Assembly (NCBI RefSeq): GCF_900089585.1
Contig: NZ_FLRH01000003.1
Span: 496,001 to 560,000, forward strand
Source of the DNA: Micromonospora sediminicola
GTDB lineage: Bacteria; Actinomycetota; Actinomycetes; Mycobacteriales; Micromonosporaceae
Length of the DNA: 64,000 nt
Direction: 5' to 3'
Positions 17,925 through 37,684 of this stretch are shown here, piece after piece. The notes beneath the pieces were generated by a model. It saw only the letters and a program-made list of their open reading frames with translations, was not told where the DNA came from and made no database searches. Each line of letters starts with the position of its first letter. Position 1 is the stretch's first letter. A program made the translations under genes and the position numbers.

Positions 17925-17959
17925 TCGCTTGCGGTGCTGTCAGGTCGTGTCCGCCCCGG

Positions 17960-21249: not shown

Positions 21250-22296
21250 TCAGTTCACCGGGCCCCCCGGCGTGGCCGTCGGCGCGGGCGCCGAGAAGTA
21301 CGGGTCGCCGGCCAACTCGCGGTACGCGGCCAGACCCTCCGGGTCGTCGTCGAAGGTGCTGTCGTACGTGGTGCCCTTGGTCTGCTTGGCCGAGAAGTAG
21401 ACCACCGCCTTGATCTGCGGGTGCTGCTTGATGTAGGTGCGCGCCTCCCGCAGCCACGCCGCCCGCTGGCCCGGCCCGCCGTCGTGGGTGACGCCGAACT
21501 CGCCGATCAGCACCGGTCGCGGCCGCTGCCGGGCGAAGGCCATGAAGGTGTCCATCTGCTCGGCGAAGCCGTCGTAGTTCTTGCCCGGGTAGACGTCCGT
21601 GCACAGCCAGTCGACCTGGTCGTCACCAGGGTAGTAGGCGGCGGCGTCGCGGCTTGAGTCCACGAAGCCGAGCACGTGCGGGCACCACACCCAGCCGGCG
21701 TTCGTGGCCCCCTCCTCGGTGAAGATGGCCCGGATGTGCTTCCACGCGGCCACGTAGTCCTCGGGCGACCGGACGCTCTGGCGCAGGTTGGGCCGGTCCA
21801 TCTCCCACCGCCACCGCAGCAGCACCGGAACCCCGAAGTCCTTGATCTTCTTGGCCCGCTGCCGGATCAGCTGGTCGTACACGCCGTCGCTGATCGACCG
21901 GGTGTCCGCGCCGGACCAGGAGATCATCTGCAGCATCTGGGCGGCCTGGAACGCGTTCTCGGTCGGGCCGGGGAAGTCGTCCTCCCACTCGTGGAACATG
22001 TGCGCCAACGTCACCTTGCCGCCGGTCTGCTCGCCGAAGGCGGTGAGGGCGCTGACCCGACCGTCGGGCGTCTGCCAGGTCGGCTTCACCCACGCGCCGA
22101 GCCAGGCACCCTGCGCCGGCATCTCCGGGCCCCGCCCGGTGGTCTCCAGGCCGCCCACCGGCCGGGGCTTCACCGGCGCGGTCTGACCGCCGGTCGACGG
22201 GGCCGGGGTGAGGGGCGCGGGCGCCTCCCGCTGACAGGCGGTCAGGGCGAGTGTCGCTCCGATCAGGAGCGCCGCCGAACTGCGGACCCACTTCAT
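21250..22296 (-). CDS. GH26-like glycoside hydrolase lipoprotein
   Basis: About 348 residues. ATG 22296 follows GGGGAGG. The signal ends in a lipobox (LALTAC), so Cys21 should be lipidated, and a Pro/Thr-rich linker follows. The catalytic domain has RWRWEMDRPN (candidate acid/base Glu), the GH26-like run WVWCPHVLGF, YYPGDDQVDWLCTDVYPG, and LIGEFGVTHD (candidate nucleophile Glu). The family includes beta-mannanases and beta-glucanases. As the last gene of the Wzz-Wzx operon it probably trims or releases the polymer at the cell surface. The specific linkage cannot be predicted. Confidence 0.78.
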   Translation of the reverse strand: MKWVRSSAALLIGATLALTACQREAPAPLTPAPSTGGQTAPVKPRPVGGLETTGRGPEMPAQGAWLGAWVKPTWQTPDGRVSALTAFGEQTGGKVTLAHMFHEWEDDFPGPTENAFQAAQMLQMISWSGADTRSISDGVYDQLIRQRAKKIKDFGVPVLLRWRWEMDRPNLRQSVRSPEDYVAAWKHIRAIFTEEGATNAGWVWCPHVLGFVDSSRDAAAYYPGDDQVDWLCTDVYPGKNYDGFAEQMDTFMAFARQRPRPVLIGEFGVTHDGGPGQRAAWLREARTYIKQHPQIKAVVYFSAKQTKGTTYDSTFDDDPEGLAAYRELAGDPYFSAPAPTATPGGPVN

Positions 22297-22322
22297 GATT
22301 GCCGTGCCTCCCCGTGTTGGTG

Positions 22323-22341
22323 CCACCGGCCGGGCCGGTGG
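22323..22341. terminator. Hairpin between flippase and GH26 genes
   Basis: CCACCGGCC-G-GGCCGGTGG: 9-bp perfect arms with one central base, inside the 68-base spacer of an otherwise overlapping operon. It may attenuate transcription into the lipoprotein gene or stabilise the upstream mRNA. Confidence 0.4.
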
Positions 22342-22364
22342 TCGATGTCGTGTGGAGTCGCCGG

Positions 22365-23930
22365 TCATCGCCCCCGGTTGCGCCGCAGCGCCCGCAGGGC
22401 GTCGAGCTGGAGCACGCCACGGAGCCGCCAGACCGCCACGGCGTAGCCGGCGCCGCCCAGTGCGGCGACCACCAGCAGGGACGCCATACCCGGATCGGTG
22501 ACCGCGTGCAGCGCCAACGACGGCGCACCGAAGCAGGCCAGCGCCAGCCCGGCGGCGGTGAGCGTGCCCCGACCGAACGGATGCAGCCGGAACGCGCGGT
22601 GCAGCTGGACCAGCGGCACCAGATTGGTGATCAGGATGGACGCGGACCAGGCGATCGCCGCACCCATGACGCCGTAGCGCGGGATGAGCAGCACGTTGGC
22701 GACCACGTTGACCACCGTGCCGGAGAGCGCGTTGTAGAACGTCCAGGCCGTCTTCCCGGCCATGTTCAGCACGGTGTCGACCATGCCGCAGCCGGTGGCG
22801 ACCAGCATCGTCAGGGCCAGGTAGACGGTGACCGTCCGCCCGGCGTCGTAACCGGAGCCGAACAGGGACAGCATGGGCTCGGCGAACGAGGCGAACAGCA
22901 GGTAGGCGGGCCAGGCCAGCAGCACCAGCCACGCGGTCGCGGCCTGGTACAGCCGTCCGGCCGCGGCCCGGTCGTCCCGGGCCAGATGCTCCGCCAGCCG
23001 GTGCTGGACGGCGGTCGACAGGGCCTGACCGGAGAGCTGACCGAGGGTCAGGAACCGGGTGGCCGCCGTGTAGAGCGCCGCCTCGGACAGCCCGCGCAGC
23101 GCGCCCAGCAGGACGATGTCGAGCCGTTGCACCACCATCTGGGCGAGCCCGCTCAACGCGCGCGGCCCGCTGTACCGCCAGTACGGGACGAACTCCTGCC
23201 GCCAGCTCACCGGCGGCGGCGCGTCCGGGCCGGCCGAGCGTTCCGCCCGCCGGACCAGGCGGGCCAGCCAGAACACGGCGGCGAGCGCGGCCGGCACGTA
23301 CGGCAGCGCCCACGCCAGCGGCAGCGCCGTGGTGGCGGAGAGGCCGAGCACGGCGACCACCAGCACGGCGAGGAACTGGAGCAGGGTGCGGCCGAGCCGC
23401 TCGATGAGCAGCAGCGGACGCATCTTGCCGAAGCCCCGGCAGGCGGACAGCGTGAAGTCGCAGAGCGCGGCCACCGGTACGAAGAGCAGCAGCGCACGCA
23501 GCGCGGGCACCGCGCCCGGGACCGGCTCGGCGAAGGTCAGCTCGACGATCCGCGGGGTGAACAGCCAGCCGACCGTCGTGAGCAGAACGCCCATGACCAG
23601 CAGCGGAAGCAGTCCGGCCAGCACCGAGGCCCGGATCCGCTCCGGCTGCCCCAGCGTCCGGTAGCGGCTGATGAAGTAGACCGAGCCGATGCCCGTGCCG
23701 AGGCGGGCGGCCGCGTACGCGATCATGAACGCGCTGGTGGCGGCGAAGAACAGACCCGCGTCCGCCATCGACCAGCCACGGGTGACCACGATGTTCAGCC
23801 CGAAGCCGGCGACCGCCGCCACCGCCACGCCGAGCAGGTTCAGCACCCCGTGCCGGGCGGCCCCGCCCAGCTCGGCGCCCGCCGCCGGTCGGGTGGGAGT
23901 TACCGTCGCCACGACGGTACGCGTCCCCAC
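22365..23930 (-). CDS. Wzx/MurJ-type polysaccharide flippase
   Basis: 521 residues with about 12-14 membrane helices. The N-terminal half shows LNIVVTRGWSMADAGLFFA, the middle loop YWRYSGPRALSGLAQMVVQR precedes LDIVLLG, and later VANVLLIPRYGVMGAAIAW. This pattern belongs to the oligosaccharide flippase (MATE/Wzx) superfamily. It is expected to flip undecaprenyl-linked repeat units across the membrane. The GTG start (23930, or an internal GTG at 23912) overlaps the sulfotransferase stop, so coupling is likely. The neighbouring ligase-like and Wzz-like genes support a Wzx/Wzy-type export route. Confidence 0.85.
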   Translation of the reverse strand: MGTRTVVATVTPTRPAAGAELGGAARHGVLNLLGVAVAAVAGFGLNIVVTRGWSMADAGLFFAATSAFMIAYAAARLGTGIGSVYFISRYRTLGQPERIRASVLAGLLPLLVMGVLLTTVGWLFTPRIVELTFAEPVPGAVPALRALLLFVPVAALCDFTLSACRGFGKMRPLLLIERLGRTLLQFLAVLVVAVLGLSATTALPLAWALPYVPAALAAVFWLARLVRRAERSAGPDAPPPVSWRQEFVPYWRYSGPRALSGLAQMVVQRLDIVLLGALRGLSEAALYTAATRFLTLGQLSGQALSTAVQHRLAEHLARDDRAAAGRLYQAATAWLVLLAWPAYLLFASFAEPMLSLFGSGYDAGRTVTVYLALTMLVATGCGMVDTVLNMAGKTAWTFYNALSGTVVNVVANVLLIPRYGVMGAAIAWSASILITNLVPLVQLHRAFRLHPFGRGTLTAAGLALACFGAPSLALHAVTDPGMASLLVVAALGGAGYAVAVWRLRGVLQLDALRALRRNRGR

Positions 23931-24760
23931 CAGGCGGCGAGCCGTTCGTCGTACGGCGTGAAGTGCGCCTCCAGCCGGGCACGCAGCTCCGGGTCCATCG
24001 CCGAGCGGGACCGCGAGTTGTGCTTGCCGAACGAGATGTCCGCCCAGTGCGGCAGGCCGAGGAAGTCGCAGACCCCGTCGAAGGCCGGCCGCGGGTCGGC
24101 GAAGAAGTCGTCGGCGTCGATCACGTGCAGCCGGTCCCGCCCGAAGATCGACTCCAGCCGCTCCAGCTGCTCGACGTACTGCCCCCGGGTCAGGTAGGCG
24201 TTGTGCTGGTAGTGGTGGCTGTGCGCGGTCGGGTCGGCGAGCAGGCGCTCCCGCTCGCCGGCGATCCGGCTCTGCTCCAGTTCGAGTGCCCGCTCGAACG
24301 TCTCCGACTCGAAGCCCCGGGCCGACTCGTGCGCGTGCGCCGAGTACGCCCGCTCCACCGGGTCGCGCAGCAGCACCAGCAGCCGGACCTCGGGCAGGTC
24401 GGCGGCGATCCGCTCACCGGCCAGCGGGTGGAACATGTAGTACGGGCTCGACTCGCCGGTCACCCCGCGCACACCGAGCTGCGCGCGTACCGCCTCGGCC
24501 CGGCGGTTCGTCGGGAAGTGCCCGAGGTACCAGTCCATGCCCCGGTCGTAGCCGGTGTCGAAGTAGTGGACGCCCTTGTGGTAGACCGCCGGCAGCACGC
24601 CCGGGTGCTGGGAGAGCGTCTTGAACAGCGACGTCGTGCCGCACCGCTGGGCGCCCACGATCAGGAAGTCGGGGGTCATCCGCGAGTTCGCCGTCCACCG
24701 ACCGACCGTCCGCGTCACCGACCGCACGGCCCGTCGGGCCTTGGCCTTGGCCAGCGTCAT
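23900..24760 (-). CDS. PAPS-dependent sulfotransferase
   Basis: 286 residues. The 5'-phosphosulfate-binding motif FLIVGAQRCGTTSLFKTL is near residues 32-49, and the 3'-phosphate motif LLRDPVERAYSAHAHE lies around 130. Both match the sulfotransferase 1/heparan-type fold. HYQHNAYLTRGQYVEQLERL is also typical of carbohydrate sulfotransferases. Its ATG overlaps the stop of the APH-like kinase gene (ATGA). Located between kinase and flippase, it probably sulfates the lipid-linked repeat unit on the cytoplasmic side. The acceptor is inferred. Confidence 0.9.
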   Translation of the reverse strand: MTLAKAKARRAVRSVTRTVGRWTANSRMTPDFLIVGAQRCGTTSLFKTLSQHPGVLPAVYHKGVHYFDTGYDRGMDWYLGHFPTNRRAEAVRAQLGVRGVTGESSPYYMFHPLAGERIAADLPEVRLLVLLRDPVERAYSAHAHESARGFESETFERALELEQSRIAGERERLLADPTAHSHHYQHNAYLTRGQYVEQLERLESIFGRDRLHVIDADDFFADPRPAFDGVCDFLGLPHWADISFGKHNSRSRSAMDPELRARLEAHFTPYDERLAAWWGRVPSWRR

Positions 24761-25983
24761 CTCAGCACTCCTCCCGCACCCGGCCGGGTCGCCAGGTGAT
24801 CCTCCACCGCCGGCAACAGCCAGGCGGCCACGTGTCCCAGCCGGGCGCCGGCCTCGGCCTGCCGGTCGCGCAGGTAGCGCGCGGCCAGCTCGACCAGGTA
24901 GAGCACCGCCACCAGGTCCTCGGTGCGGGCCGGCGGCGCGAACGGGGCGAGCGTGCCCGCCGCCCCGCCCAGCAGCTCGCGGGCCGCCGTCGTCGGCTCC
25001 ACCCCGGCCTTGGTGATCGCCGTCTGGAGCCGTCGGTGCAGCGCGTCGTAGCCGACCGGCACGCCCGCCGCGAACCGCTCCCAGTCCCAGACGAGCATCC
25101 GCCCGTCGGCCAGCGCCGCGCTGTTGCCGCCGTTCCAGTCGCCGTGCCAGGCGCCGAGGTCGAGCGTCGGGTCGAGGTCGACGACGGTGGCCAGCACCGC
25201 GCGCAGCCGCGCGGTCTCCGGCCGGTCACCCAGCGCCTCGACCTCGGCGGCGAGACGGTCGGCGTAGCCGCTGCCCGCGAGGGGTCGGCGGTCGACGCCC
25301 AGGCAGCGGCTGACCGCCACCATCGCCTCGCGTTCCCGCTCGGCGGCCGCCGCCGGCGTCGCCCGGGGCAGCCCCACGGGAAGTGCGCTCTGCACGAGCA
25401 GGGCGTGCGGGCCCCAGGCGCCGTGGTGCAACACGTCGGCCACCACGATCCCGGGCAGGTCGACGGTGGCCAGCCGGCGCAGGACCTCGGCCTCGGCGTC
25501 GACCAGGCCACGGGTGAGCGGGTCCACGCCCAGTTTGGCGTACCCCAACGGTCGGCCGTGGTCGTCGAGCAGCTGGATCACCGGCTTGCGGTTGGCGCGG
25601 GCCGGACCGATGTGCACGCTCAGCAACGCCGGGCGGCCGAGCACCTCGGTCAGGTGCTCCTCCAGCGTTCCGCCGGTCGCCCCGACCTGGAGACGGTCCC
25701 GGAAGGCGAGCCGGCCGAGACCGGTGCGGAAGGCGGTGGCCAGCAGCGACCGGCGCAGCCGGGCCCTCGTACCCACCGCCTCCGTCGAGTGCCGGACCGC
25801 GCTGGCCGCGGCCCGCCGCGAGCCGGCGGGCACCAGCAGCCGGGGTCGCGCGGCCGAGGGCACCACGGCGTAGCCGGCGCCGCCGCGGCGCAGCGTCGGG
25901 CCGGCCGGTTCCGGCCAGACCACGGCCGCCAGCTCGGGCAGGTACGCCGCGCGCGCGTCATCGACTCGTGGGGTTGCGGTCAT
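24757..25983 (-). CDS. Aminoglycoside-phosphotransferase-like kinase in the exopolysaccharide operon
   Basis: About 408 residues. The C-terminal half has the APH/choline-kinase catalytic loop LGAWHGDWNGGNSAAL (HGDxxxxN) and the metal-binding MLVWDWERFAAG in place of the usual DxD/DWE. The N-terminal lobe has HIGPARANRKPVIQLL and a Lys in GYAKLGVD. Start ATG 25983 is fused to the ligase stop as TGATG, and its own stop overlaps the sulfotransferase start. It could phosphorylate a sugar, the lipid-linked glycan or another small molecule; nothing in the sequence fixes this. Antibiotic modification is unlikely from context. Confidence 0.75.
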   Translation of the reverse strand: MTATPRVDDARAAYLPELAAVVWPEPAGPTLRRGGAGYAVVPSAARPRLLVPAGSRRAAASAVRHSTEAVGTRARLRRSLLATAFRTGLGRLAFRDRLQVGATGGTLEEHLTEVLGRPALLSVHIGPARANRKPVIQLLDDHGRPLGYAKLGVDPLTRGLVDAEAEVLRRLATVDLPGIVVADVLHHGAWGPHALLVQSALPVGLPRATPAAAAEREREAMVAVSRCLGVDRRPLAGSGYADRLAAEVEALGDRPETARLRAVLATVVDLDPTLDLGAWHGDWNGGNSAALADGRMLVWDWERFAAGVPVGYDALHRRLQTAITKAGVEPTTAARELLGGAAGTLAPFAPPARTEDLVAVLYLVELAARYLRDRQAEAGARLGHVAAWLLPAVEDHLATRPGAGGVLR

Positions 25984-27449
25984 CAGCGGGTCCGTTCCCG
26001 TCGGTTGGTCGGCACGGCGGACGCCACCGCGGCGAGCGCCTCCCGGCGCAGCGTCCGCAGGTACTGGTCGTTGCGGGCCAGCACCGCCACGCTGATCAGG
26101 CCGTACGCCAGCGTGGTGTTCAGGGCGCCGTAGAGGAACTGGAAGAACAGCATCAGGATCAGCACCGCGCTGCCGGCGATGCCGATGGCGGTATGGTCGC
26201 GTCGGAACCGCCACAGGCACCAGAGGAAGAACGCGCTGTAGCAGAACGCGCCGACCCAGCCCTGGCCCACGAGCAGGTTCCAGACCTGCCCGTTGCTGCC
26301 CAGCTCCCGGTTGCCGCACTGCTGGCAGTCGGCCGACTTGCCGATCGCGATCGACCGGTTGCTGCCGATCAGCGCCCGGTTGGCGCCGTAACCCAGCACC
26401 GGCGAGTGGTTGGCCGCCTCGACCGCCCCGTTGGACAGGGTGGCCCGGATCTCGTCACTGTGCCCGTTCTGCATCCGCTCGTCGAGCAGCCCGCCCAGCG
26501 GTGAGGCCAGCACCAGCACCCCGGCCAGCGCGGTAGCCAGCGCCATGCCGGCGAGGACCGCGATCCGGCCGCGCAGCGCCAGCCGCAGGGCGACGTAGAC
26601 GGCGGCGATCACCAGCCCGATCCAGAGACCGCGGTTGAGGGAGAACACGATCGGGAAGATCGCGGCGGCCACCATCAGGTATCCGCCGAGCCGGCGCAGC
26701 CCTCGGCCGTACACCACCCAGCCGACGAGGAACCAGATGAGCAGGATGCCCATGTTCTCGCCCCAGGTGTTCGTGTACTCGAACGGGGCGGCCGGACGCG
26801 GGGAACTGGCTTCGCCCTCCAGCACCTCCTGCACCTGGGCCACCTCGACGTGCATGAGCCGGTTGACGAACGGCTCCTTGGCGATGACGTCGGGCAGGAT
26901 GTAGTTGAGCGGGGCGGTGAACTTCAGGTCGGGCAGCAGCGCGCCGACGTAGCCGCCGATCACGGTGACCACGGCCAGGAACCCGAAGAGCCGCAGCATC
27001 CGGATCCGCGGCAGCTCCTTCTCGCTCAGGTTGAGCACGTAGAGCATCGTGATGGTCAGCGCCGTGTAGTTCATCACCCGGATGCCCCAGCCGATGTACC
27101 GGCCGAAACCGTCCGGGGCCAGCGTGTTCGGCGCGGTGACGTCCAGCATCAGCCCGGAGAGCACCACCCAGGCGAGCAGGATCAGCCAGAACCCGAAGCC
27201 GGGGGGCACCCGGATGCGGTCGCGCCGGCGCAGTTGGAACGCCATCGGCACGGCGAGGATGGCGAAGATGAACGACGGCAGGCCGAGCGCCCACCACACC
27301 GGGTAGAGCACGAAGAGCGCGATCAGCGGCCACGCGGTGGGCAGACCTCGACGTCCGGCGGCGCGTACGCCGGCCGGCGCCCCCGTCGGCACCGGATCAC
27401 TCGGCACCGGCTCCGGCCGCGAGGGCTGGAGCGGGACGAGCGTCTTCAT
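25983..27449 (-). CDS. O-antigen ligase/polymerase-like membrane protein
   Basis: About 488 residues with 11-12 membrane helices. A large extracytoplasmic loop before the last helices contains GYGANRALIGSNRS and QVWNLLVGQGWVGAFCY. The helix MVAAAIFPIVFSLNRGLWIGLV is the conserved Wzy_C/WaaL core. By family it polymerises or ligates undecaprenyl-linked repeats on the outer face of the membrane. The start overlaps the DUF3048 stop (ATGA) and its stop overlaps the kinase start. The loop CQQCG pair (SADCQQCGNRE) could form an extracytoplasmic disulfide. Confidence 0.87.
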   Translation of the reverse strand: MKTLVPLQPSRPEPVPSDPVPTGAPAGVRAAGRRGLPTAWPLIALFVLYPVWWALGLPSFIFAILAVPMAFQLRRRDRIRVPPGFGFWLILLAWVVLSGLMLDVTAPNTLAPDGFGRYIGWGIRVMNYTALTITMLYVLNLSEKELPRIRMLRLFGFLAVVTVIGGYVGALLPDLKFTAPLNYILPDVIAKEPFVNRLMHVEVAQVQEVLEGEASSPRPAAPFEYTNTWGENMGILLIWFLVGWVVYGRGLRRLGGYLMVAAAIFPIVFSLNRGLWIGLVIAAVYVALRLALRGRIAVLAGMALATALAGVLVLASPLGGLLDERMQNGHSDEIRATLSNGAVEAANHSPVLGYGANRALIGSNRSIAIGKSADCQQCGNRELGSNGQVWNLLVGQGWVGAFCYSAFFLWCLWRFRRDHTAIGIAGSAVLILMLFFQFLYGALNTTLAYGLISVAVLARNDQYLRTLRREALAAVASAVPTNRRERTR

Positions 27450-28441
27450 GTGACCGCTACCCGGGCCGTCGTCGGCGCGTAGACGATCCAGGTGGTGCCC
27501 GGCTGCGGGCGGACCTGGAATCCGGCCAGGTCGGTGACGTTGCAGACGAGCTTCTGCCCGGGCTTGCTCCACTGCGCCTTGGCGCTCGACGGCCCGGACA
27601 CGACCAGGGCCGCGCCCTTGCCGTAGACGTTGGCGCTCGGCAGGGAGCGCGGGCTGGGCTTGCGGACGTTCAGCGTCCGGTATTCCATCGTGAGCACGAC
27701 CACCGAGGCGGCGGTCACGGAGGTCTTGCCGACCCGTCCCGACCACTGCTGCTTCGCCTGGTCGTACGTCCAGGTCTGGGTGCGGTGACCGGACGCCGAG
27801 ACGGTGAGTTTGCTGGCGGGCGCGACGTCCCGGGTGGCCAGCGCCGTGCCCGTGGTGGCGTAGTCGAACAGCGGCGCCGGTGCGGCGCCGCCCTTCGGCG
27901 CGGTGGCCCGCAGTGCCGTCGTGGAGGTGTTTCCGCCCGGGAACGCGGAGCTGCGCTGCGCCGGCGTCACGCCGCTCAGGTCGGCGGCCTTGAGCTGGCT
28001 GACGAAACCGGTGGGACCACCGTCGTAGCCGAGCCAGGGGCGGAGCACGCCGACGCTGCGGATGTCGACCGGGCGGATCTCGGCCACCGGGCCGATCTTC
28101 GCGGCGTCGCGGGACTGGTAGACCGCGCTCAGGTGCAGGCTGCCCGACTCGGCGAACTCCTGGTAGACCAGGTCCGCCGCGTCGAGGCCGGTCGCGGTGC
28201 CGGACTCGCTCACCCGGATCGGCACCGCCAGCGCCTGCCGCGCCTCCACTCCCGGCTGGGTCAGCGGCTGCCCGGAGAGCGGCCCCGCCGGCAGGCTGGG
28301 CGTCGGGCTGGGCTTCGGCGCCGGGGTGCCCGGGTCGACCAGGTCGGTCGCACCCGGGGGCGGCGGGTCGCTGCACGCGGCGCCCAGCGCGACGATCAGC
28401 ACCCCGACGGCCGACGCCACGACAGACCGTCGGAGCCTCAC
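27446..28441 (-). CDS. DUF3048 (YerB-like) lipoprotein
   Basis: 331 residues. The signal ends LGAAC (lipidated Cys23) and a Pro/Ala-rich linker follows. The body matches what is known of YerB/DUF3048: the N-terminal part has GLDAADLVYQEFAESGS and AAKIGPVAEIRPVDIRSV, and the C-terminal part LDYRTL-like segments and QKLVCNVTDLAGFQV. It is exported and membrane-anchored. Family function is poorly known. Its position between the Wzz-like and polymerase genes, with 4-base overlaps on both sides (GTGA and ATGA), argues for a role in the same polymer pathway. Confidence 0.8.
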   Translation of the reverse strand: MRLRRSVVASAVGVLIVALGAACSDPPPPGATDLVDPGTPAPKPSPTPSLPAGPLSGQPLTQPGVEARQALAVPIRVSESGTATGLDAADLVYQEFAESGSLHLSAVYQSRDAAKIGPVAEIRPVDIRSVGVLRPWLGYDGGPTGFVSQLKAADLSGVTPAQRSSAFPGGNTSTTALRATAPKGGAAPAPLFDYATTGTALATRDVAPASKLTVSASGHRTQTWTYDQAKQQWSGRVGKTSVTAASVVVLTMEYRTLNVRKPSPRSLPSANVYGKGAALVVSGPSSAKAQWSKPGQKLVCNVTDLAGFQVRPQPGTTWIVYAPTTARVAVT

Positions 28442-30336: not shown

Positions 30337-30490
30337 CGGAGTGTGTCGCTCCCTTTCGACCGGACCGGCCAGTCAGCCGTGGGACGTCCGCGCCACGGTG
30401 AATTCTGAGTCTCCCTGATCGGAGCGGAGAGTGGAAGTCGCCGAGGGTCCGCCACTTCTGCCCGGAGGGTGCCGGGACGATAATGCACTG

Positions 30491-31429: not shown

Positions 31430-31435
31430 CCGGTT

Positions 31436-31462
31436 CCGGCGGGCCGGCGACCGGCCCGCCGG
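31436..31462. terminator. Bidirectional intrinsic terminator
   Basis: CCGGCGGGCCGG and its complement CCGGCCCGCCGG (12-bp perfect arms) around a CGA loop. It lies between the convergent GT14 and sulfotransferase genes. Confidence 0.8.
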
Positions 31463-31471
31463 ACCGGCGGC

Positions 31472-32461
31472 TCAGCGGTAGTCGTACCGCCGACGCAGCG
31501 GCCAGGTCATCGCACCGACCATCCGGCGGCGGCCGGGCGCGTACTCACGACGCCACTTCTCGTCGAGGCTGAGCGCGATCGGCCCGGTGCGCATCCGGAT
31601 CCGTCCGCCGGCCACCGCGTGCGACCCGGCCTGCTCGAACTCGGTGCCGTGCAGGAACGACAGCGGGTCGACCTGGCCGGTCACGTCGGCCGTCAGGGCG
31701 GCGATCCGGCCCAGCTCCGTCCGTGGGTCGCGGACCAGGTCCTCGTACCGGACGACCACCCGCGGGACGCCGGACCGGGCGAGCGACGAGATCATCGCGT
31801 TGACGGTGACCCAGCGCCGCGCGGTCAGCCGGGCCGAGCGCTGGTTCATCCGGCCCTTGGTGGAGGTGCCCTCGGGCAGCTCGACGAGCTGGCTCCAGGA
31901 GTAGGCCACCCCGCGCGGGTCGCGGAGGATGTGCACCAGCCGCAGGTCGATCTCCGGCGCGCGGGCCAGGATGTACGCCAGCGAGGGGCGCTTGGTCGAG
32001 TCGACCACCACCTTGGCGCCGGACACCTCGGCGATCGCCCGGTAGAGCTTCGTGATCAGCGTCGTGTAGCGCTCCAGGTCCTGCCGGAAACCCGGCACGA
32101 CCCGGGCCCCCTTGATCATCGGAACCTTGCCGGTGGCGTCGACCCGGCGTTGCAGGGCGCGGACCTCCTGCACGTCGATGTTCGCCCAGCCGCCGTACGC
32201 GCGCCGGCCGACCTCACCCCAGAACGGGCACTCGTCGAAGTGTTCCCCGCAGGCGCAGCGGAAGTTCCGTTCCACCCCGGACTGCCACAGGTAGAACAAC
32301 TCGCCGACGTCGCAGTGGTCGACGAACTGGCCGAGCATCAGGTCGAGCAGGGTGGAACCGCTGCGCGGCATCCCGCAGACGTAGAGCACCGTCACCCGGT
32401 CGGTGCCGGACGGAGCGCCCGCCCCGGAACCGTCCGCTGCCGCAGGCTGCTGGGCCGTCAT
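31472..32461 (-). CDS. Sulfotransferase, second copy
   Basis: About 329 residues. ATG 32461 follows GAGGAGAAG. The PAPS 5' motif VCGMPRSGSTLLDLML is near residue 28, and the 3' motif HILRDPRGVAYSWSQL is in the middle. A Cys pair lies in FRCACGEHFDECPFWGE. It is clearly paralogous to the plus-strand enzyme at 33725, with the same GRSGST/PRSGST, CGCGE and AYSW landmarks. It stands alone, convergent with GT14 and divergent from the Alg14-like gene. It probably sulfates another position of the same glycan. Confidence 0.87.
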   Translation of the reverse strand: MTAQQPAAADGSGAGAPSGTDRVTVLYVCGMPRSGSTLLDLMLGQFVDHCDVGELFYLWQSGVERNFRCACGEHFDECPFWGEVGRRAYGGWANIDVQEVRALQRRVDATGKVPMIKGARVVPGFRQDLERYTTLITKLYRAIAEVSGAKVVVDSTKRPSLAYILARAPEIDLRLVHILRDPRGVAYSWSQLVELPEGTSTKGRMNQRSARLTARRWVTVNAMISSLARSGVPRVVVRYEDLVRDPRTELGRIAALTADVTGQVDPLSFLHGTEFEQAGSHAVAGGRIRMRTGPIALSLDEKWRREYAPGRRRMVGAMTWPLRRRYDYR

Positions 32462-32679
32462 CGATCGCTTCTCCTCGTCCCCGGTGGATGTCAAGCGGCA
32501 GTGTAGGCGCGATCGGAGGAGCCGGGGATTGGCGGAATGCGTGAAGGAATCCGACCGGCAGGACGTGAATCGTGACTCCCACTTCTGTTCCGCGTGCGCT
32601 GCCGTTAGATTGTTCCGGCGCTCAGCTGACCGTCCCACGGAAGTGGCACGGGTGTGCGGTGGGGGAGGCGGTTGGAGAC

Positions 32680-33138
32680 GTGGAGCCCGGTGAAGTCATG
32701 CTCGTGGGTTCCAGTGGCGGGCACCTTGCCCAGCTGCTGGCGCTCGCACCCTGGTATCGCAACCGCGCTCGTTCCTGGGTGACCTTCGACACCCCGGACG
32801 CGCGCTCGCTGCTCGACGGGGAGCAGGTCGTGTGGGCGCACCACCCCACCACCCGCAACGTGAAGAACCTGGCCCGGAACATGCTGCTCGCGGTCCGGAC
32901 GCTCAAGCGCCGCAACATCGACGCGGTGGTCACCACCGGCGCCGGTGTCGCGTTGCCGTTCGTCGTGGTGGCGCGGCTGCGCGGGATCCCCACCGTCTAC
33001 ATCGAGGTGTACGACCGGATCGACAGCCCCACGCTCACCGCCCGGCTCTGCCGCCCGTTCCTCTCGGCGATGCTGGTGCAGTGGGAGGAGCAGCGCCGCT
33101 TCTATCCCGACGGCACCGTGGTGGGGAATCTCCTGTGA
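32680..33138 (+). CDS. Alg14/PssD-like glycosyltransferase subunit
   Basis: About 152 residues. VMLVGSSGGHLAQLLAL is the conserved N-terminal glycine motif, and VVTTGAGVALPFVVVARLRG and PTVYIEVYDRIDSPTL follow. This is the membrane-associated, acceptor-side half of a split GT28-type transferase. GTG 32680 (after GGAG) or ATG 32698 may start it. Its stop overlaps the start of the donor-side half as GTGA. In other bacteria such pairs (PssD/PssE) build exopolysaccharide repeat units. Confidence 0.87.
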   Translation: MEPGEVMLVGSSGGHLAQLLALAPWYRNRARSWVTFDTPDARSLLDGEQVVWAHHPTTRNVKNLARNMLLAVRTLKRRNIDAVVTTGAGVALPFVVVARLRGIPTVYIEVYDRIDSPTLTARLCRPFLSAMLVQWEEQRRFYPDGTVVGNLL

Positions 33139-33728
33139 CCTCGTTCATCCCCCGGCAGCGGCAGACCGACCCGGAGCCGGACACCGTGCTGGCCATGGTC
33201 GGCACCGACGTGCACAGGTTCGACCGGCTGGTCGGCTGGCTGGAACGCTGGTGGACCGCCCGCGCCGACGGTCCGCGGCAGGTCCGGCTGGTCCTCCAGT
33301 ACGGCAGCAGCACCCCGCCGGACCTGCCGGACGCGGTGCCGTTCCTGGCCCACGACGAGTTGCAGCGGGCGATCGCCGAGGCGAACGTCGTGGTCTGCCA
33401 CGGCGGGCCGGCCACCATCACCGAGGCCCGACGCAACGGCCACCTGCCGATCGTGGTCCCGCGCGACCCCGCCCACCACGAGCACGTCGACAACCACCAG
33501 CAGCTCTTCTCCCGCCGGCTCGGCTCCGCCGGCATGGTGCGGCTGGTCGAGACCGAGGCCGACCTGGTCGAGGCGCTCGACAAGGCGCTCGTCGACCCGG
33601 CGACCTTCCGGCTGGACGCCGACCCGGACCGCCCCGACCCCCGCGCCGCCGCGGCGGCGCGCGTCGGCCAGATCGTCGAGGACCTGGTACGCCAGCGTGC
33701 GTCGGGACGACGCCGGTGGTGGCGGTGA
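33135..33728 (+). CDS. Alg13/PssE-like glycosyltransferase subunit
   Basis: About 197 residues. AMVGTDVHRFDRLVGWLE opens the domain. The GT28 donor motif VVCHGGPATITEARRNG, followed by PIVVPRDPAHHEHVDNHQ, identifies the UDP-sugar-binding half, which pairs with the Alg14-like protein encoded just upstream. The GTG shares bases with the upstream stop. Together they should transfer one sugar to a lipid-linked intermediate at the inner membrane face. The sugar is unknown. Confidence 0.88.
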   Translation: MTSFIPRQRQTDPEPDTVLAMVGTDVHRFDRLVGWLERWWTARADGPRQVRLVLQYGSSTPPDLPDAVPFLAHDELQRAIAEANVVVCHGGPATITEARRNGHLPIVVPRDPAHHEHVDNHQQLFSRRLGSAGMVRLVETEADLVEALDKALVDPATFRLDADPDRPDPRAAAAARVGQIVEDLVRQRASGRRRWWR

Positions 33729-34687
33729 CCGCGCCGGTCCGCGTGCTCTTCGTCGGCGGCCTCGGACGCAGCGGCTCCACCCTGCTGGAGCTGATCCTCG
33801 CCCAGCACCCCGACGTCTGTGCCGTCGGTGAGGTGGTGCACCTCTGGGAGCGGGCCCTCGGTGGCGACGAACGCTGCGGCTGCGGCGAGCGCTTCACGGT
33901 CTGTGGCTTCTGGCAGCAGGTCGGCGACCACGCGTTCGGCGGTTGGGACGCGGTCGACCGGGACGAGGTGCTGGCGCTCAAGGCCGAGGTCGACCGGACC
34001 CGGCACATCCCGCAGCTGGCCCGGGGCGACCTGCCGGCCGAGCAGTTGGCCGCCGTGCGCCGCTACGCCGACCTCTACACCCGCATCTACCGGGCGGCGA
34101 CCGAGGTCACCGGCGCCGAGGTGGTGGTGGACTCCAGCAAGCACGCCTCGACGGCGTTCGCCCTGCGCTGGGCGCCCGATCTCGACCTGCGGGTCGTCCA
34201 CCTGGTCCGGGACAGCCGGGCGGTCGCCTACTCCTGGGCCAAGCAGGTCCGCCGCCCCGAGGTGGTGGACGGCGAGGCCTACATGCCGACCTTCTCCCCG
34301 TTCACGGTGAGCAGCCTGTGGACCGCGCAGAACGCGGCGTTCCACCTGCTCGCCCAGCGGGTGCCGGTGGTCCGGCTGCGCTACGAGGACTTCACCGCCG
34401 ACCCGCGCGGCACCGTGACCCGGGTGCGCCGGTTCGCCGGTCTCACCGACACCCCGGACGCGCTGCGGGTCCTCGACGAGCCGCCCGTGCCGCTGGTCCG
34501 GGCGCACAGCATCGCCGGCAACCCGCTGCGGTTCAGCGCGGGTCCGCTGAAGGTGCGCCAGGACAACGCCTGGCGGGAGAACCTGCCGACGCGCAGCCGG
34601 GCCGTGGTCAGTGCCGCGACGCTGCCGCTGCGCCTGCGCTACGGATACCTCGGCGGCGGCCGAACCAACAGCACGGAGGCGTCGTGA
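33725..34687 (+). CDS. Sulfotransferase, third copy
   Basis: About 320 residues starting GTG 33725 (GTGA overlap with the Alg13-like stop). It carries LFVGGLGRSGSTLLELIL (5'-PSB), VVDSSKHASTAFAL, HLVRDSRAVAYSWAKQV (3'-PB) and LRYEDFTADPRG. Cysteines in RCGCGERFTVCGFW match those in the paralogue at 31472. Because it is translationally coupled to the Alg13/14 pair and the GT2, it probably modifies the sugar that those enzymes install. Confidence 0.88.
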   Translation: MTAPVRVLFVGGLGRSGSTLLELILAQHPDVCAVGEVVHLWERALGGDERCGCGERFTVCGFWQQVGDHAFGGWDAVDRDEVLALKAEVDRTRHIPQLARGDLPAEQLAAVRRYADLYTRIYRAATEVTGAEVVVDSSKHASTAFALRWAPDLDLRVVHLVRDSRAVAYSWAKQVRRPEVVDGEAYMPTFSPFTVSSLWTAQNAAFHLLAQRVPVVRLRYEDFTADPRGTVTRVRRFAGLTDTPDALRVLDEPPVPLVRAHSIAGNPLRFSAGPLKVRQDNAWRENLPTRSRAVVSAATLPLRLRYGYLGGGRTNSTEAS

Positions 34688-35598
34688 CCGGGAGCAACCC
34701 ACCGCAGGTGACCGCCGTGGTCCCCACCCGGGACCGGCCGGTGCTGCTGCGCGCCGCCCTCGACGCGATCCTGGGACAGGACTACCCGGGCGGGATCGAC
34801 GTGGTGGTCGTCTACGACCAGTCCGAGCCCGACCACACCCTCGCCGAGGACCCGCGGATCCGGGTGATCACCAACAGCCGTACCCCCGGCCTCGCGGGTG
34901 CCCGCAACACCGGCATCCTCGCCGCCGAGGGTGAGCTGGTCGCGTTCTGCGACGACGACGACGAGTGGCTGCCCGGCAAGCTGGCCGCCCAGGTCGCCGC
35001 GCTGGAGGCGACGGCGGACGGCGCGTTCGTCAGCTGCGGCATCCGGGTCGACTACGACGGCCGCCAGGTCGACCGCTCGTTGTCGATGGAGCGGGTGCCG
35101 CTGGCGTCGCTGCTGCGCGACCGGCACACCGAACTGCACCCGTCCACGTTCCTGATCCGGCGGGACGCGCTGGTCGACGCGATCGGGCTGGTCGACGAGG
35201 AGATCCCGGGCAGCTACGCGGAGGACTACGAGTTCCTGCTCCGGGCCGCCCGGCACGCGCCGCTGGTCAACCTGACCGAGCCGTACGTGACGGTGCGCTG
35301 GCACAAGCGGTCATACTTCGCCCAGCGCTGGGAGACCATCTCCACCGCGTTGCAGTGGTTGCTGGAGCGCTACCCCGAGTTCGCCACGGTGCCGGCGGGG
35401 GAGGCCCGGGTCGCCGGGCAGATCGCCTTCGCCCAGGCCGCGATGGGCAACCGTCGGGAGGCCGTCCGCTGGGCCCGCCGCACGCTGGCCGGCAACCCGA
35501 AGGAGGCCCGCGCCTACCTGGCGCTCGCCGTGGCCAGCAAGGCCGTGGACCCCGACCGCGTCCTGCGTACGCTGCACAAGCGCGGCCGGGGCATCTGA
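34684..35598 (+). CDS. Glycosyltransferase family 2
   Basis: About 304 residues. GT-A fold: VTAVVPTRDRPVLLRAAL, DVVVVYDQS, PGLAGARNTGILAAEGELVAF, then CDDDDEW, the metal-binding DxD region near residue 100. EEIPGSYAEDYEFLLRAAR supplies the ED catalytic-base motif. The start overlaps the sulfotransferase stop (GTGA). A C-terminal helical extension after residue about 240 has repeated Ala/Arg helices. It is last gene of the four-gene operon. Confidence 0.9.
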   Translation: MTGSNPPQVTAVVPTRDRPVLLRAALDAILGQDYPGGIDVVVVYDQSEPDHTLAEDPRIRVITNSRTPGLAGARNTGILAAEGELVAFCDDDDEWLPGKLAAQVAALEATADGAFVSCGIRVDYDGRQVDRSLSMERVPLASLLRDRHTELHPSTFLIRRDALVDAIGLVDEEIPGSYAEDYEFLLRAARHAPLVNLTEPYVTVRWHKRSYFAQRWETISTALQWLLERYPEFATVPAGEARVAGQIAFAQAAMGNRREAVRWARRTLAGNPKEARAYLALAVASKAVDPDRVLRTLHKRGRGI

Positions 35599-35608
35599 GC
35601 CGGAGCGG

Positions 35609-36760
35609 TCAGGCGGACGCCGAGCACCAGGCGCGCCAGGCGTCCCTGCTGGGTTGGTCGGTGAGCCGGAAGTCTCCGCCGGACACCTGGTAGTCGTAGT
35701 ACGCCACCCAGAGCGGGCGCTGCCCGTTCAGGTAGCTGCTCATCGATCGGATCCAGGCGGCGCGGCCGGTGCCGCTGTCCCCGGCGATCCGCACGCTGCC
35801 GGTCTCGGCGAGGCCCCAGGGCTTGCCGAGCTCCTTCGACTTGCTGATCATCGGTCCGAAGACCTTGGCCGGCTCGGTGTAGCGGTTGTACTTGCCGCCG
35901 CTGTTGTAGCAGTCCCAGCCGAGCACGTCGACGACGTCGCCGCCGGGGTAGTAGTCGGTGAAGCTGCGCCGGGAGTTCGGGTTCAGCGTCCAGCACATGA
36001 GGATCAGCGTCGCCCGCAGCCGCGGGTTCTGGGCCCGGTCGGCGAGGCCGGCCACCCGGCGCCAGGCGGCCCGGAACTGGGCGGTGGTGTAGTTGCCGCT
36101 CTCCACGTCGTTCTCCGGCTCGTGGAAGTACGACCAGTAGACGTCGTGGTCGCGCGGGATCGAGGCGAACCACTGCGTCAGCCGGGCGTCGTGCTTACCG
36201 GCGGCGACCTCCGCCGGCGGCGCCTTGAAGGACACCACCACGGTCCGGTTGACCACGTCGGCGCGGCTGCCCGACCAGGCGGGCGGCAGACCCGGGTAGA
36301 ACACCCGGACCATCCGCAACGGGCCGTAGGTGCGGTCGGAACGGGCCACGCCGGCGCTGAAGCTCTCGCCGCCGACCAGGTGGATGCTCGCCCCGGGCAG
36401 GGTGGCCCGCGGCGCCGGGAACGGCTGGAAGCCGGGCCTGGCCGACGGGGACTGGCCGGGCGAGAGGCTCGGGTTGGCGCCGAGCCCGGCGACCCCACCG
36501 GTCGGACGGGCGGACAGGGACGCGGCCCCGCCGGGCGTGGCCGCGACGCTTCCCGGCCCGTTCGCCTCCGGGGCCGGCTGCCGTGCGGGCTCCCGCTCCT
36601 GCGTGACCGCGACGGCGACCGTCGTGCTGAGCAGGACGACGGTCGCGGTGACGGCGACGAGCCAGCCGCGCCGGTAGAGGCGGCGTGGCCGCCGGCCCGG
36701 GGGTGGGGTCGGGGCCGGGTGGGCATCGCGAACGGGGGCGATTGACGGGCCGGGTCCCAT
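35609..36760 (-). CDS. Membrane-anchored GH26-like hydrolase, second copy
   Basis: About 383 residues. ATG 36760 follows GAGGAGG. A short cytoplasmic stretch, one helix (WLVAVTATVVLLSTTVAVAV, about 33-52) and a Pro/Ala/Ser-rich linker lead to a catalytic-like domain from about residue 125. DHDVYWSYFHEPEND holds the candidate acid/base Glu and PWGLAETGSVR the candidate nucleophile. YYPGGDVVDVLGWDCYNSG parallels the lipoprotein at 21250. It is convergent with the GT2 operon and follows cysQ. It is probably a surface enzyme acting on the same polymer. Confidence 0.75.
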   Translation of the reverse strand: MGPGPSIAPVRDAHPAPTPPPGRRPRRLYRRGWLVAVTATVVLLSTTVAVAVTQEREPARQPAPEANGPGSVAATPGGAASLSARPTGGVAGLGANPSLSPGQSPSARPGFQPFPAPRATLPGASIHLVGGESFSAGVARSDRTYGPLRMVRVFYPGLPPAWSGSRADVVNRTVVVSFKAPPAEVAAGKHDARLTQWFASIPRDHDVYWSYFHEPENDVESGNYTTAQFRAAWRRVAGLADRAQNPRLRATLILMCWTLNPNSRRSFTDYYPGGDVVDVLGWDCYNSGGKYNRYTEPAKVFGPMISKSKELGKPWGLAETGSVRIAGDSGTGRAAWIRSMSSYLNGQRPLWVAYYDYQVSGGDFRLTDQPSRDAWRAWCSASA

Positions 36761-36856
36761 GATCCTCCTCCGGATCGGCGTGTCAGCTGTCTCCCGGCTC
36801 AGCACCGGCGTCACCGCATAGTGCAACGAGCGAGGCGGCAGGTCGGTGCGGTGCCG

Positions 36857-37684
36857 TCACAGCAACCGGTCGATGGCCTTCAGCAGCTGCTCGGCCTGCT
36901 CGGGCCGGCAGACGAGCAGGTCGGGCAGGCGGGGGTTGGCGGCGTTGTAGCGCAGCGGTGACCCGTCGATCCGGGACGCGTGCATCCCCGCCCCGAGCGC
37001 GACCGCCACCGGGGCGGCGGAGTCCCACTCGTACTGCCCGCCGGCGTGCACGTACGCGTCGGCCTGGCCGGTCACCACCGCGCAGACCTTGACACCGGCG
37101 GAGCCCATCGGCACCGCCTGCGCGCCGAGGTCCTCGATGAGCTGGGGGACGAACGCGGGCGGCCGGCTGCGGCTGACCGCGATCCGCAGCGGACCGTCGA
37201 CCGCGGCGGGTGTCGGCTCGCCCGTGCCCAGGATCAGCGGGGTGCCGTCCGCGCCGGTCCGCGCCGGCATGCCGACGGCGCCGGCGGTCAGACCGCCGTC
37301 CGGGCCGGCCGAGCGCTCCCAGAGGGCCACGTGGACGGCCCAGTCGGTGCGCCCCTCCTCCGAGAACTCCCGGGTGCCGTCCAGCGGGTCGATGATCCAC
37401 ACCCGGTCGGCGTCGAGGCGGGCCGCCCGGTCGCCGGTGGAGAAGTCCTGTCGGGAGTCCGCCTGCTCCTCGGAGAGCACCGCGTCGGTCGGCCGGTAGC
37501 GGGCCAGCGCGGCCAGCATCAGCTCGTGCGAGGCCTGGTCGCCGGCGTCCTTGAGCGCCCGCGGGTCGGCGAAGCCCTGGCCGGCGCGCAGCGCGGTCAG
37601 CGCCTCGCCGGCGCGTCCGGCCAGCCAGCGCGCGAAGGCCTGATCGTCGAGCCGGTCGATGTCGTCGGACACCTTGCCATCCAC
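36857..37684 (-). CDS. cysQ: 3'(2'),5'-bisphosphate nucleotidase (CysQ-type, FIG superfamily)
   Basis: About 275 residues. Metal-binding motifs of the inositol-monophosphatase superfamily are present: AVLSEEQADS (motif with Glu), WIIDPLDGTREFSEEGRTDW (DPxDGT) and GGQYEWDSAAPVAVALGAG (WDxAA). DGTxEF rather than DGTxNF is typical of CysQ. By family it hydrolyses PAP, the by-product of PAPS-dependent sulfation. Its place beside three sulfotransferase genes supports that role directly. The start is uncertain: GTG 37684 or GTG 37672. Confidence 0.87.
   Translation of the reverse strand: MDGKVSDDIDRLDDQAFARWLAGRAGEALTALRAGQGFADPRALKDAGDQASHELMLAALARYRPTDAVLSEEQADSRQDFSTGDRAARLDADRVWIIDPLDGTREFSEEGRTDWAVHVALWERSAGPDGGLTAGAVGMPARTGADGTPLILGTGEPTPAAVDGPLRIAVSRSRPPAFVPQLIEDLGAQAVPMGSAGVKVCAVVTGQADAYVHAGGQYEWDSAAPVAVALGAGMHASRIDGSPLRYNAANPRLPDLLVCRPEQAEQLLKAIDRLL

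What the first reader, a model, noticed from the sequence alone, without database searches (positions are those of the whole stretch)
21250..37684. Locus for a sulfated surface polysaccharide, with PAP recycling built in
Seven overlapping minus-strand genes (Wzz-like, DUF3048 lipoprotein, WaaL/Wzy-like, APH-like kinase, sulfotransferase, Wzx, GH26-like) lie beside GT14, a lone sulfotransferase, and a GTGA-coupled operon of Alg14-like, Alg13-like, sulfotransferase and GT2 genes. A second GH26-like gene and cysQ follow. Three sulfotransferases plus a PAP phosphatase beside a flippase and polymerase point to a polymer sulfated on its lipid carrier before export. Sulfated exopolysaccharide is rarely described in actinobacteria. 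Motifs are seen directly; the product is inference.
Basis: partly seen in the sequence, partly recalled or inferred. Interest (0 to 1): 0.85.

Follow-up and report, generated by a model that had tools for sequence, protein, structure and literature searches.

The report
Sulfated surface-sugar island in Micromonospora
A 20-kilobase island that some Micromonospora carry and others lack encodes a predicted assembly line for a surface polysaccharide that is likely sulfated, with three sulfotransferase genes and an extra gene that would clear their by-product; relatives of its core genes occur across the family, so a sulfated coat thought nearly unique to cyanobacteria among bacteria may be common in these soil bacteria.

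Summary
The reading is largely supported; sulfate itself is unshown, here and in print. The unit is larger than drawn: in 15 of 15 Micromonospora genomes examined that lack this version, the chromosome closes up before an aminotransferase gene, so the island spans ~17.9-37.8 kb, malectin protein and cysQ included. PAP recycling is borne out: a window-type second cysQ is in 13 of 16 genomes with the island, 0 of 45 without. The core recurs family-wide: 140 of 145 Wzy matches have the sulfotransferase within 6 kb; in 72 of 122 genomes (22 genera) the ATP-sulfurylase/APS-kinase gene lies within 20 kb of Wzy. The kind is in print: wps-1 of Actinoplanes missouriensis, needed for normal sporangia, has the same core order, and its authors also predict sulfation without proof (PMC13390465; L214). 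New here: the island, the dedicated cysQ, the PAPS-gene linkage (which would explain the published AMIS_7390 mutant) and the presence in a genus without sporangia. Verdict: new variant of a known kind.

The parts
17960..21172 (-). MAL: large, predicted secreted protein, beta-propeller (DUF5122/Rax2-like) plus two malectin domains; first gene inside the island; probably starts near 21031
   Evidence: Pfam Malectin 90 bits; missing from the site in 15 of 15 genomes without the island; MAL-like protein in 77 of 120 loci
21250..22296 (-). GH26a: lipoprotein-type glycoside hydrolase, WpsE-like; E165 and E266 of the putative catalytic pair kept
   Evidence: PF02156 25.8 bits over cut-off 20.2; both Glu in 11 of 11 GH26a rows; 41% to L214 WpsE
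22365..23930 (-). WZX: flippase, WpsG-like
   Evidence: MatE, Polysacc_synt, MurJ over cut-offs; 10 TM-like segments
23900..24760 (-). ST1: sulfotransferase, WpsH-like, heparan-sulfate-sulfotransferase type
   Evidence: PF00685 48.5, PF13469 48.0 bits; profile finds heparan sulfate 3-OST-5 at 6.7e-24 and NDST at 5.8e-21; invariant R41, E105, R134, S142 (first-row numbering, 26 rows)
24757..25983 (-). APH-like kinase of unknown substrate, WpsI-like
   Evidence: No Pfam hit of its own; ortholog in L087 PF01636 22.8 bits, cut-off 23.2; HGD, N and WD.E invariant in 27 rows
25983..27449 (-). WZY: polymerase/ligase-like membrane protein, WpsJ-like
   Evidence: PF04932 33.5 bits over cut-off 31.7; 8 TM-like segments
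27446..28441 (-). DUF3048 protein with TM-like N terminus
   Evidence: PF11258 46.3, PF17479 41.4 bits; in 31 of 120 loci
28438..30336 (-). WZZ: chain-length determinant with Wzc-like ATPase part, WpsK-like
   Evidence: PF02706 34.9 bits; NCBIfam matches to polysaccharide co-polymerases, below their cut-offs
30491..31429 (+). GT14/Branch-like glycosyltransferase candidate
   Evidence: PF02485 E 0.084, below cut-off; in 3 of 150 family genomes, own included; with ST2 in 5 of 5 named Micromonospora loci that carry it
31472..32461 (-). ST2: sulfotransferase, cassette partner of the GT14-like gene
   Evidence: PF13469 51.0 bits
32698..33138 (+). PssD/Alg14-like glycosyltransferase half
   Evidence: PF08660 35.8 bits over cut-off 27; NF041549 PssD 101.6, just under 110
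33135..33728 (+). PssE/Alg13-like glycosyltransferase half (likely glucuronosyl transfer with PssD)
   Evidence: PF04101 55.3 bits; WelK 73.4 and PssE 50.0 bits, below cut-offs
33725..34687 (+). ST3: sulfotransferase, WpsB-like
   Evidence: PF13469 63.4 bits; 54% to L214 WpsB
34684..35598 (+). GT2 glycosyltransferase, WpsA-like
   Evidence: PF00535 77.3 bits; 51% to L214 WpsA
35609..36760 (-). GH26b: second GH26-like protein, N-terminal membrane anchor
   Evidence: PF02156 18.0 bits, below cut-off 20.2; 24% to GH26a
36857..37687 (-). CysQ-like PAP phosphatase, island-borne second copy
   Evidence: PF00459 101.1 bits; TIGR01331 95.0 bits, below cut-off 228.8; 63% to the copy beside the genome's cysD-cysN; window-type copy only in island-bearing genomes
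17850..18010 (.). left border of the island (place varies with the empty site compared)
   Evidence: blastn of the flank against 15 empty sites, 10 with a left match
37797..37810 (.). right border of the island, just upstream of the aminotransferase gene
   Evidence: identity to empty sites resumes here in 8 of 15, in the other 7 at ~37874
10237..11742 (-). outside the island: constant-flank sugar-phosphate transferase (PGT), candidate priming enzyme
   Evidence: PF02397 225.1 bits; present in the flank in 14 of 15 empty-site genomes; PGT-like protein within the span of 14 of 120 loci

Best explanation
The window carries a 20-kb chromosomal island, present in some Micromonospora and absent at the same site in others, that encodes a predicted Wzx/Wzy pathway likely to build, sulfate and export a surface polysaccharide, with its own extra CysQ-like gene that would remove the sulfotransfer by-product PAP. 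Likely working: (1) a priming transferase, probably the one at 10.2-11.7 kb in the constant flank, loads the lipid carrier [inferred]; (2) PssD/PssE, GT2 and the GT14-like enzyme add sugars, one likely glucuronic acid [inferred from family]; (3) ST1, ST2 and ST3, which lack TM-like segments [shown], sulfate the lipid-linked unit in the cytoplasm with PAPS from the genome's single APS kinase [reaction inferred], while CysQ hydrolyses PAP, which would otherwise inhibit them [inferred]; (4) Wzx flips, Wzy polymerises, Wzz sets length [inferred from family]; (5) the anchored GH26 proteins trim or release chains and the malectin protein binds them outside [weakest inference].
For: Families over curated cut-offs for Wzx, Wzy, Wzz, three sulfotransferases and GH26a. 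Operon unity: 104 of 120 loci keep Wzy-kinase-ST1 adjacent on one strand (the loci were chosen by ST1, and at least four genomes occur twice). Independent of that choice: 140 of 145 Wzy match rows have an ST1-family match within 6 kb. PAPS link: in 72 of 122 genomes with both (22 genera) the ATP-sulfurylase/APS-kinase gene lies within 20 kb of a Wzy match; by my arithmetic chance gives ~0.5% a genome. Island-borne cysQ: 13 of 16 versus 0 of 45; the 3 exceptions are assemblies of 380-890 contigs. Borders: 15 of 15 empty sites. Published mutants of a cluster with the same core order (wpsA-K and AMIS_7390; all but wpsD needed).
Against: No sulfate has been measured, here or in A. missouriensis. 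PF04932 also holds ligases, so Wzy could attach the unit rather than polymerise it. The island lacks its own priming enzyme. CysQ, PssD/E (NCBIfam), the kinase, GH26b and the GT14-like protein miss curated cut-offs. In Micromonospora the PAPS-making gene is not linked (own copy ~0.85 Mb away), and 0 of 10 B-type loci carry a sulfate-activation gene in the stretch read. An extra CysQ-like gene is not by itself a mark of the island: five genomes without it also have two, at 62-65% to the window copy. One published sulfotransferase mutant (wpsB) had normal-looking sporangia and only a tenfold loss of released spores. Outside the family the module is patchy: ST1 (E <= 1e-60) in 14 and kinase (E <= 1e-40) in 5 of 198 phylum-wide genomes, own included.
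Confidence: 0.78

Rival explanations
1. The sulfotransferases decorate a short lipid-linked oligosaccharide that a WaaL-type ligase attaches to a protein, lipid or wall polymer; there is no long sulfated polysaccharide.
For: The membrane enzyme belongs to PF04932, named O-antigen ligase; the ST2/ST3 profile finds small-molecule and tyrosine sulfotransferases rather than polysaccharide ones, at weak scores.
Against: A Wzz-type chain-length protein is present in 110 of 120 loci and GH26-type proteins in 107 of 120; both make more sense with a polymer.
Confidence: 0.12
2. The sulfotransferase-fold proteins no longer use PAPS, and the polymer is unsulfated; cysQ and sulfate-activation genes are neighbours for other reasons.
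For: ST1 has Arg where heparan sulfotransferases have Lys in the PAPS loop; no chemistry.
Against: Motif residues invariant over 26 sequences; PAPS/PAP genes of several kinds (APS-kinase proteins mostly fused to ATP-sulfurylase, CysD, CysN, CysQ) sit in the span of 45 of 120 loci; the window-type cysQ rides only with the island.
Confidence: 0.06
3. A sporangium-matrix locus, as in Actinoplanes, that in Micromonospora is a relic without function.
For: Same core as wps-1; Micromonospora forms single spores, not sporangia (recalled; Verrucosispora, a close relative, is described as lacking sporangia in PMC5754459, passages seen).
Against: The window's genes are open over their length and 91 to 99.7% alike in M. 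maritima; 59 of 61 Micromonospora genomes have an A- or B-type ST1, which a relic would not.
Confidence: 0.04

Closest known systems
wps-1 cluster (wpsA-wpsK, with AMIS_7390) of Actinoplanes missouriensis, PMC13390465 (abstract, Results and first part of Discussion read; rest by passages)
   Same: Same core in the same order: Wzz, Wzy, kinase-like, sulfotransferase, Wzx, then GH26, with a second sulfotransferase plus GT2 alongside; L214 (8,773,466-base contig, taken as that genome by its size [recalled] and by gene order) gives 36-54% identity for the eight shared proteins.
   Different: The window has PssD/PssE instead of the GT26 gene WpsC, no methyltransferase or DUF4262 gene, a third sulfotransferase with a GT14-like partner, DUF3048, a malectin protein, a second GH26-like protein and its own cysQ; its PAPS-making gene is elsewhere; it sits on an island that comes and goes; the genus makes no sporangia (recalled).
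xss cluster for synechan in Synechocystis PCC 6803, PMC8205485 (passages read)
   Same: Wzx/Wzy/PCP pathway with two sulfotransferases of different subfamilies; there sulfate was measured in the product.
   Different: Cyanobacterial, plasmid-borne, eight glycosyltransferases, outer-membrane exporter, no cysQ in the passages seen; homology protein by protein not tested here.
Heparan sulfate 3-O- and N-sulfotransferases (PDB 3bd9, 1nst)
   Same: ST1 profile finds them at 6.7e-24 and 5.8e-21; the Glu of the ESSP/EKSP motif is aligned with that of 3-OST-5.
   Different: Animal enzymes acting on finished chains (recalled); the PAPS-loop Lys is Arg in ST1.
PssD/PssE and WelK glucuronosyltransferases
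   Same: Alg14/Alg13-type split pair in an exopolysaccharide locus.
   Different: Scores just below or well below the curated cut-offs; acceptor unknown.

Membership tests
Wzx/Wzy-dependent polysaccharide locus | flippase, polymerase and chain-length protein encoded together | tested here: met
   MatE/Polysacc_synt, Wzy_C and Wzz over Pfam cut-offs in one operon
Wzx/Wzy-dependent polysaccharide locus | priming sugar-phosphate transferase in the locus | tested here: inconclusive
   None inside the island; a PF02397 protein lies 6 kb outside in the constant flank
Wzx/Wzy-dependent polysaccharide locus | polymer product | not testable with these tools
   needs glycan analysis
wps-1-type cluster | adjacent Wzz-Wzy-kinase-sulfotransferase-Wzx core | tested here: met
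   same order in window (DUF3048 inserted after Wzz) and L214
wps-1-type cluster | second sulfotransferase and GT2 beside the core | tested here: met
   ST3 54%, GT2 51% to L214
wps-1-type cluster | GT26 (WpsC) and methyltransferase (WpsF) | tested here: not met
   no gene called between 17.96 and 38.97 kb matched these families; so filed as a variant, not the same cluster
wps-1-type cluster | role in the spore-bearing structure | not testable with these tools
   mutants needed
sulfated-EPS cluster (synechan kind) | two or more sulfotransferases of different subfamilies inside a Wzx/Wzy locus | tested here: met
   ST1 versus ST2/ST3, all over the PF13469 cut-off; different nearest PDB entries
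sulfated-EPS cluster (synechan kind) | sulfate in the product | not testable with these tools
   no chemistry
CysQ (TIGR01331) | score over equivalog cut-off | tested here: not met
   95.0 against 228.8; the Actinomadura copy between cysD and a PGT gene also scores only 89.5, so the cut-off seems set for another branch
CysQ (TIGR01331) | functional context of sulfate activation | tested here: met
   63% identical paralog is followed by cysD and cysN in this genome (L198); window-type copy only with the ST1 island
GH26 | Pfam cut-off and catalytic Glu pair | tested here: met
   GH26a 25.8 over 20.2, E165 and E266 kept; GH26b falls below at 18.0
GT14 / Branch | Pfam cut-off | tested here: not met
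   12.9 against 23.4
APH kinase | Pfam cut-off | tested here: not met
   no hit in the window; of two orthologs scanned one has none and one 22.8 against 23.2; motif kept

The most novel reading that the evidence does not exclude
Micromonosporaceae as a family make a bacterial counterpart of a sulfated glycosaminoglycan: a glucuronate-containing polymer sulfated by heparan-type sulfotransferases, with the whole PAPS cycle (ATP-sulfurylase/APS-kinase or CysDN to make the donor, CysQ to clear PAP) drawn into the locus, and exchanged between species as alternative, mutually exclusive islands like capsule types.
Probability: 0.15. Interest if true: 0.88.

Novelty: new variant of a known kind. Interest (0 to 1): 0.62.

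Why it matters
Two papers state that sulfated polysaccharides among bacteria are a cyanobacterial trait (PMC8205485, passage; PMC13390465, passage). If this reading is right, the capacity is very widespread in a main antibiotic-producing family, also in a genus without sporangia, so its role is wider than the sporangium matrix. The linkage of the PAPS-making gene offers a simple reason for the published but unexplained sporangium defect of the AMIS_7390 mutant: the sulfotransferases would lose their donor. Island and empty-site relatives give natural contrasts for testing what a sulfated coat does (water holding, metal binding, escape from phage or predators).

Tried and rejected
One conserved gene order in Micromonosporaceae: rejected; the GT14-like gene is in 3 of 150 family genomes, own included, and versions differ. 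CysQ beside the locus by accident: rejected. Phylogenetic profile of the ATP-sulfurylase/APS-kinase gene: uninformative, since 149 of 150 genomes have a match; only its position tells. My first count of that linkage used ST1-family matches (77 of 123 genomes, 23 genera); six of those genomes have the gene beside an ST1-like gene that is not the one near Wzy, so I recounted against Wzy matches (72 of 122, 22 genera) and use that. That the genes at 10-17 kb (PGT, GT4, CDP-alcohol transferase, Fe-ADH, nucleotidyltransferase) belong to the unit: rejected, they stay when the island is absent (PGT seen in 14 of 15). A single gain of the island: not supported; on the NTPtr tree (22 island rows, of which two are one genome, and 15 empty rows; island locus L129, a MAG, dropped) well-supported branches force at least 4 changes, on the AAT tree (5 and 15 rows; two further island loci too short) 2; single-gene trees, gain and loss not told apart. 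Mobile-element signatures were not searched for. Family names of clustered genes (ATPS-APSK, CysN, CysD, CysQ, GT26, PAP2, RCC1) rest on one scanned representative each; for the first four I checked every member by BLAST: all match their representative at 48-100% identity, but about ten of the 29 in the first cluster match only over the APS-kinase part.

That nothing in print describes this for Micromonospora rests (0 papers for Micromonospora + sulfotransferase + polysaccharide + Wzx), in an open-licence library. One EPS with measured sulfate from Streptomyces rochei OF1 appears in a search listing (PMC9911575, listing only). Fold of the kinase and of ST1: not obtained.

The ST1 match list was truncated by the tool, so the count is a lower bound; rows of the own genome were left out. 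The 80 named loci are the best 80 of at least 565. The 15 empty-site genomes were picked by me from those without A-type ST1 (13 B-type, 2 with neither), mostly with few contigs.


Full report
What is there. Gene calls by codon usage and Pfam/NCBIfam scans give, from right to left on the minus strand, Wzz, DUF3048, Wzy, an APH-like kinase, sulfotransferase ST1, Wzx and GH26a; then a GT14-like gene, ST2, PssD, PssE, ST3, GT2, GH26b and a CysQ-like gene. The GTGA overlaps are in the sequence. Several names rest on sub-threshold scores: GT14-like 12.9 of 23.4 bits, GH26b 18.0 of 20.2, CysQ 95 of 228.8, PssD 101.6 of 110; the kinase has no hit of its own. Three of the genome's four PF13469 matches lie here.

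What genome. The window lies on a 4.6-Mb contig of a 6.9-Mb genome. Its genus group contains contigs whose lengths equal those of Micromonospora sp. AMSO31t, M. chaiyaphumensis and M. humi, so the genus is Micromonospora.

The unit is an island. I looked at the aminotransferase neighbourhood in 15 Micromonospora genomes without this version of the locus (13 with a B-type ST1, 2 with neither). In 15 of 15 the nucleotidyltransferase gene and the aminotransferase gene are separated only by one to three small genes (the CBS-domain gene labelled in 12), and nothing from the malectin gene to cysQ appears in the stretch. Flank identity ends near 17.85-18.0 kb on the left (10 of 15 with a match) and resumes at 37,797-37,810 (8 of 15) or ~37,874 (7 of 15) on the right. 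So the malectin protein and cysQ belong to the unit, and the priming-type transferase at 10.2-11.7 kb does not. On trees of flank genes, island and empty rows interleave (at least 4 forced changes on one gene, 2 on the other), which fits repeated exchange, loss or both.

The cysQ link. All 61 Micromonospora genomes examined (own included) have a CysQ-like gene at 59-66% identity to the island copy; in this genome it is followed by cysD and cysN. A copy 79-100% alike is found in 13 genomes. All 13 are among the 16 with the A-type ST1 (77-100%), at 11.5-13.0 kb from it in the 12 where both lie on one contig; the other three of the 16 are assemblies of 380, 800 and 890 contigs. None of the other 45 genomes has it (Fisher p = 8.5e-11; relatedness ignored). 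Five of those 45 do have two CysQ-like genes, but both at 62-65%.

Spread of the core. In 150 genomes of the family, ST1 matches at E <= 1e-10 occur in 133 and Wzy matches in 123, own genome counted. Of 145 Wzy match rows in 122 other genomes, 140 have an ST1-family match within 6 kb (median 2.5 kb). In 120 loci picked by ST1 homology (40 unnamed, 80 named; at least four genomes twice), Wzy and the kinase are found in 117 each, Wzz in 110, Wzx and GH26 in 107 each, GT2 in 82, malectin protein in 77, ST2/ST3-type in 71; many loci are cut by contig ends. Named holders outside the family include Actinomadura, Acrocarpospora, Sphaerisporangium, Modestobacter, Geodermatophilus and Thermomonospora. 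In a phylum-wide draw of 198 genomes ST1 (E <= 1e-60) is in 14 and the kinase (E <= 1e-40) in 5, own included: common in this family, patchy elsewhere. In Micromonospora an A type of ST1 (16 of 61) and a B type (43, 41-45% identity) were not found together; 2 have neither; ten B loci were read and have the same kinds of genes in another order. Within the A version the third sulfotransferase varies: GT14-like plus ST2 (together in 5 of 5 named loci with either), or another sulfotransferase between Wzx and GH26a, never both in 25 locus records, of which 5 are cut short and three genomes occur twice.

The PAPS link. The bifunctional ATP-sulfurylase/APS-kinase gene is matched in 149 of 150 family genomes. 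In 72 of the 122 other genomes that also have a Wzy match it lies within 20 kb of it, in 22 genera. CysD, CysN or CysQ genes sit in further loci; 45 of 120 loci carry at least one such gene, 0 of the 10 B-type loci among them. In Micromonospora the gene is elsewhere (own copy ~0.85 Mb away, the only APS-kinase match in the genome).

Against what is known. L214, from a contig of 8,773,466 bases, has the order published for wps-1 of Actinoplanes missouriensis: GT2, sulfotransferase, opposite-strand GT26, a 179-residue protein, GH26, methyltransferase, Wzx, sulfotransferase, kinase, Wzy, Wzz, then the ATP-sulfurylase/APS-kinase gene (the size of that genome is recalled). The paper deleted each gene: all but wpsD are needed for normal sporangia or full spore release; wpsA, C, G, H, I, J and K gave squashed sporangia; wpsB looked normal but released ten times fewer spores; wpsE was mild; AMIS_7390 was unexpectedly severe. 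The authors predict sulfated polysaccharide and say it awaits proof. My reading that AMIS_7390 supplies PAPS to the cluster is not in the parts I read; they note that a link of this enzyme family to development was unreported, and that the gene is under different transcriptional control.

Sulfotransferase type. The ST1 profile finds a bacterial sulfotransferase (3rnl, 6.4e-30), then heparan sulfate 3-OST-5 (6.7e-24) and NDST (5.8e-21). The ST2/ST3 profile finds 4gox, CurM and tyrosine sulfotransferases at weaker scores. None of the three has a TM-like segment, so sulfation before the flippase is the simplest order; it is inferred.

What remains inferred. That the product is a polymer, that it is sulfated, the sugars in it, the kinase's substrate, and the roles of GH26, DUF3048 and the malectin protein. 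A ligase reading of the Wzy-type protein is the main rival.

Verdict. A real, well-bounded locus; the chemistry is likely but unproven; a new variant of a kind that reached print in 2026, with a stronger case for sulfation than the published parts I read make, because of the PAPS and PAP gene linkages.

Noticed in passing
window 14352-16835: CDP-alcohol transferase, Fe-ADH_2 (glycerol-1-phosphate-dehydrogenase-like) and nucleotidyltransferase genes in a row, kept in 15 of 15 empty-site genomes; looks like a small CDP-polyol pathway of its own.
   Followed up: partly
window 8210-11742: Priming-type sugar transferase gene next to a histidine kinase and LytTR-type regulator; possibly controls the start of surface polysaccharides.
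   Followed up: no
L215 8114-10527, L216 7071-15323: A third kind of ST1-like gene (42-43% to ST1) beside a Wzx-like gene with further sulfotransferase-like genes nearby; in 14 of 61 Micromonospora genomes, with A or B type.
   Followed up: partly
L098-L107: B version of the locus in Micromonospora: PssD, malectin protein, Wzz, Wzy, Wzx, ST1-like and kinase in another order; a PAP2-type phosphatase gene in 7 of these 10.
   Followed up: partly
G000 C4:1947993 (L002, L197): Fourth sulfotransferase of the genome; none of the 19 other genes called around it matched a Wzx, Wzy or Wzz protein of the window.
   Followed up: partly
L149 16323-18982 and like loci: Actinomadura/Thermomonospora versions carry an RCC1-repeat protein and a weakly methyltransferase-like protein after Wzx.
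   Followed up: no
G034 C1:3711182-3712991 and five more genomes of that genus: An ST1-like gene (45-47%) directly beside the ATP-sulfurylase/APS-kinase gene, away from the Wzy match.
   Followed up: no
window 17960-21172: Predicted secreted beta-propeller protein with two malectin domains; malectin-type proteins recur in 77 of 120 loci, a candidate binder of the polymer.
   Followed up: partly
G003, G156, G169, G179, G191: Micromonospora genomes without the island that have two CysQ-like genes at 62-65%; all five are among the 14 with the third kind of ST1-like gene, though in G003 the two lie ~165 kb apart.
   Followed up: no
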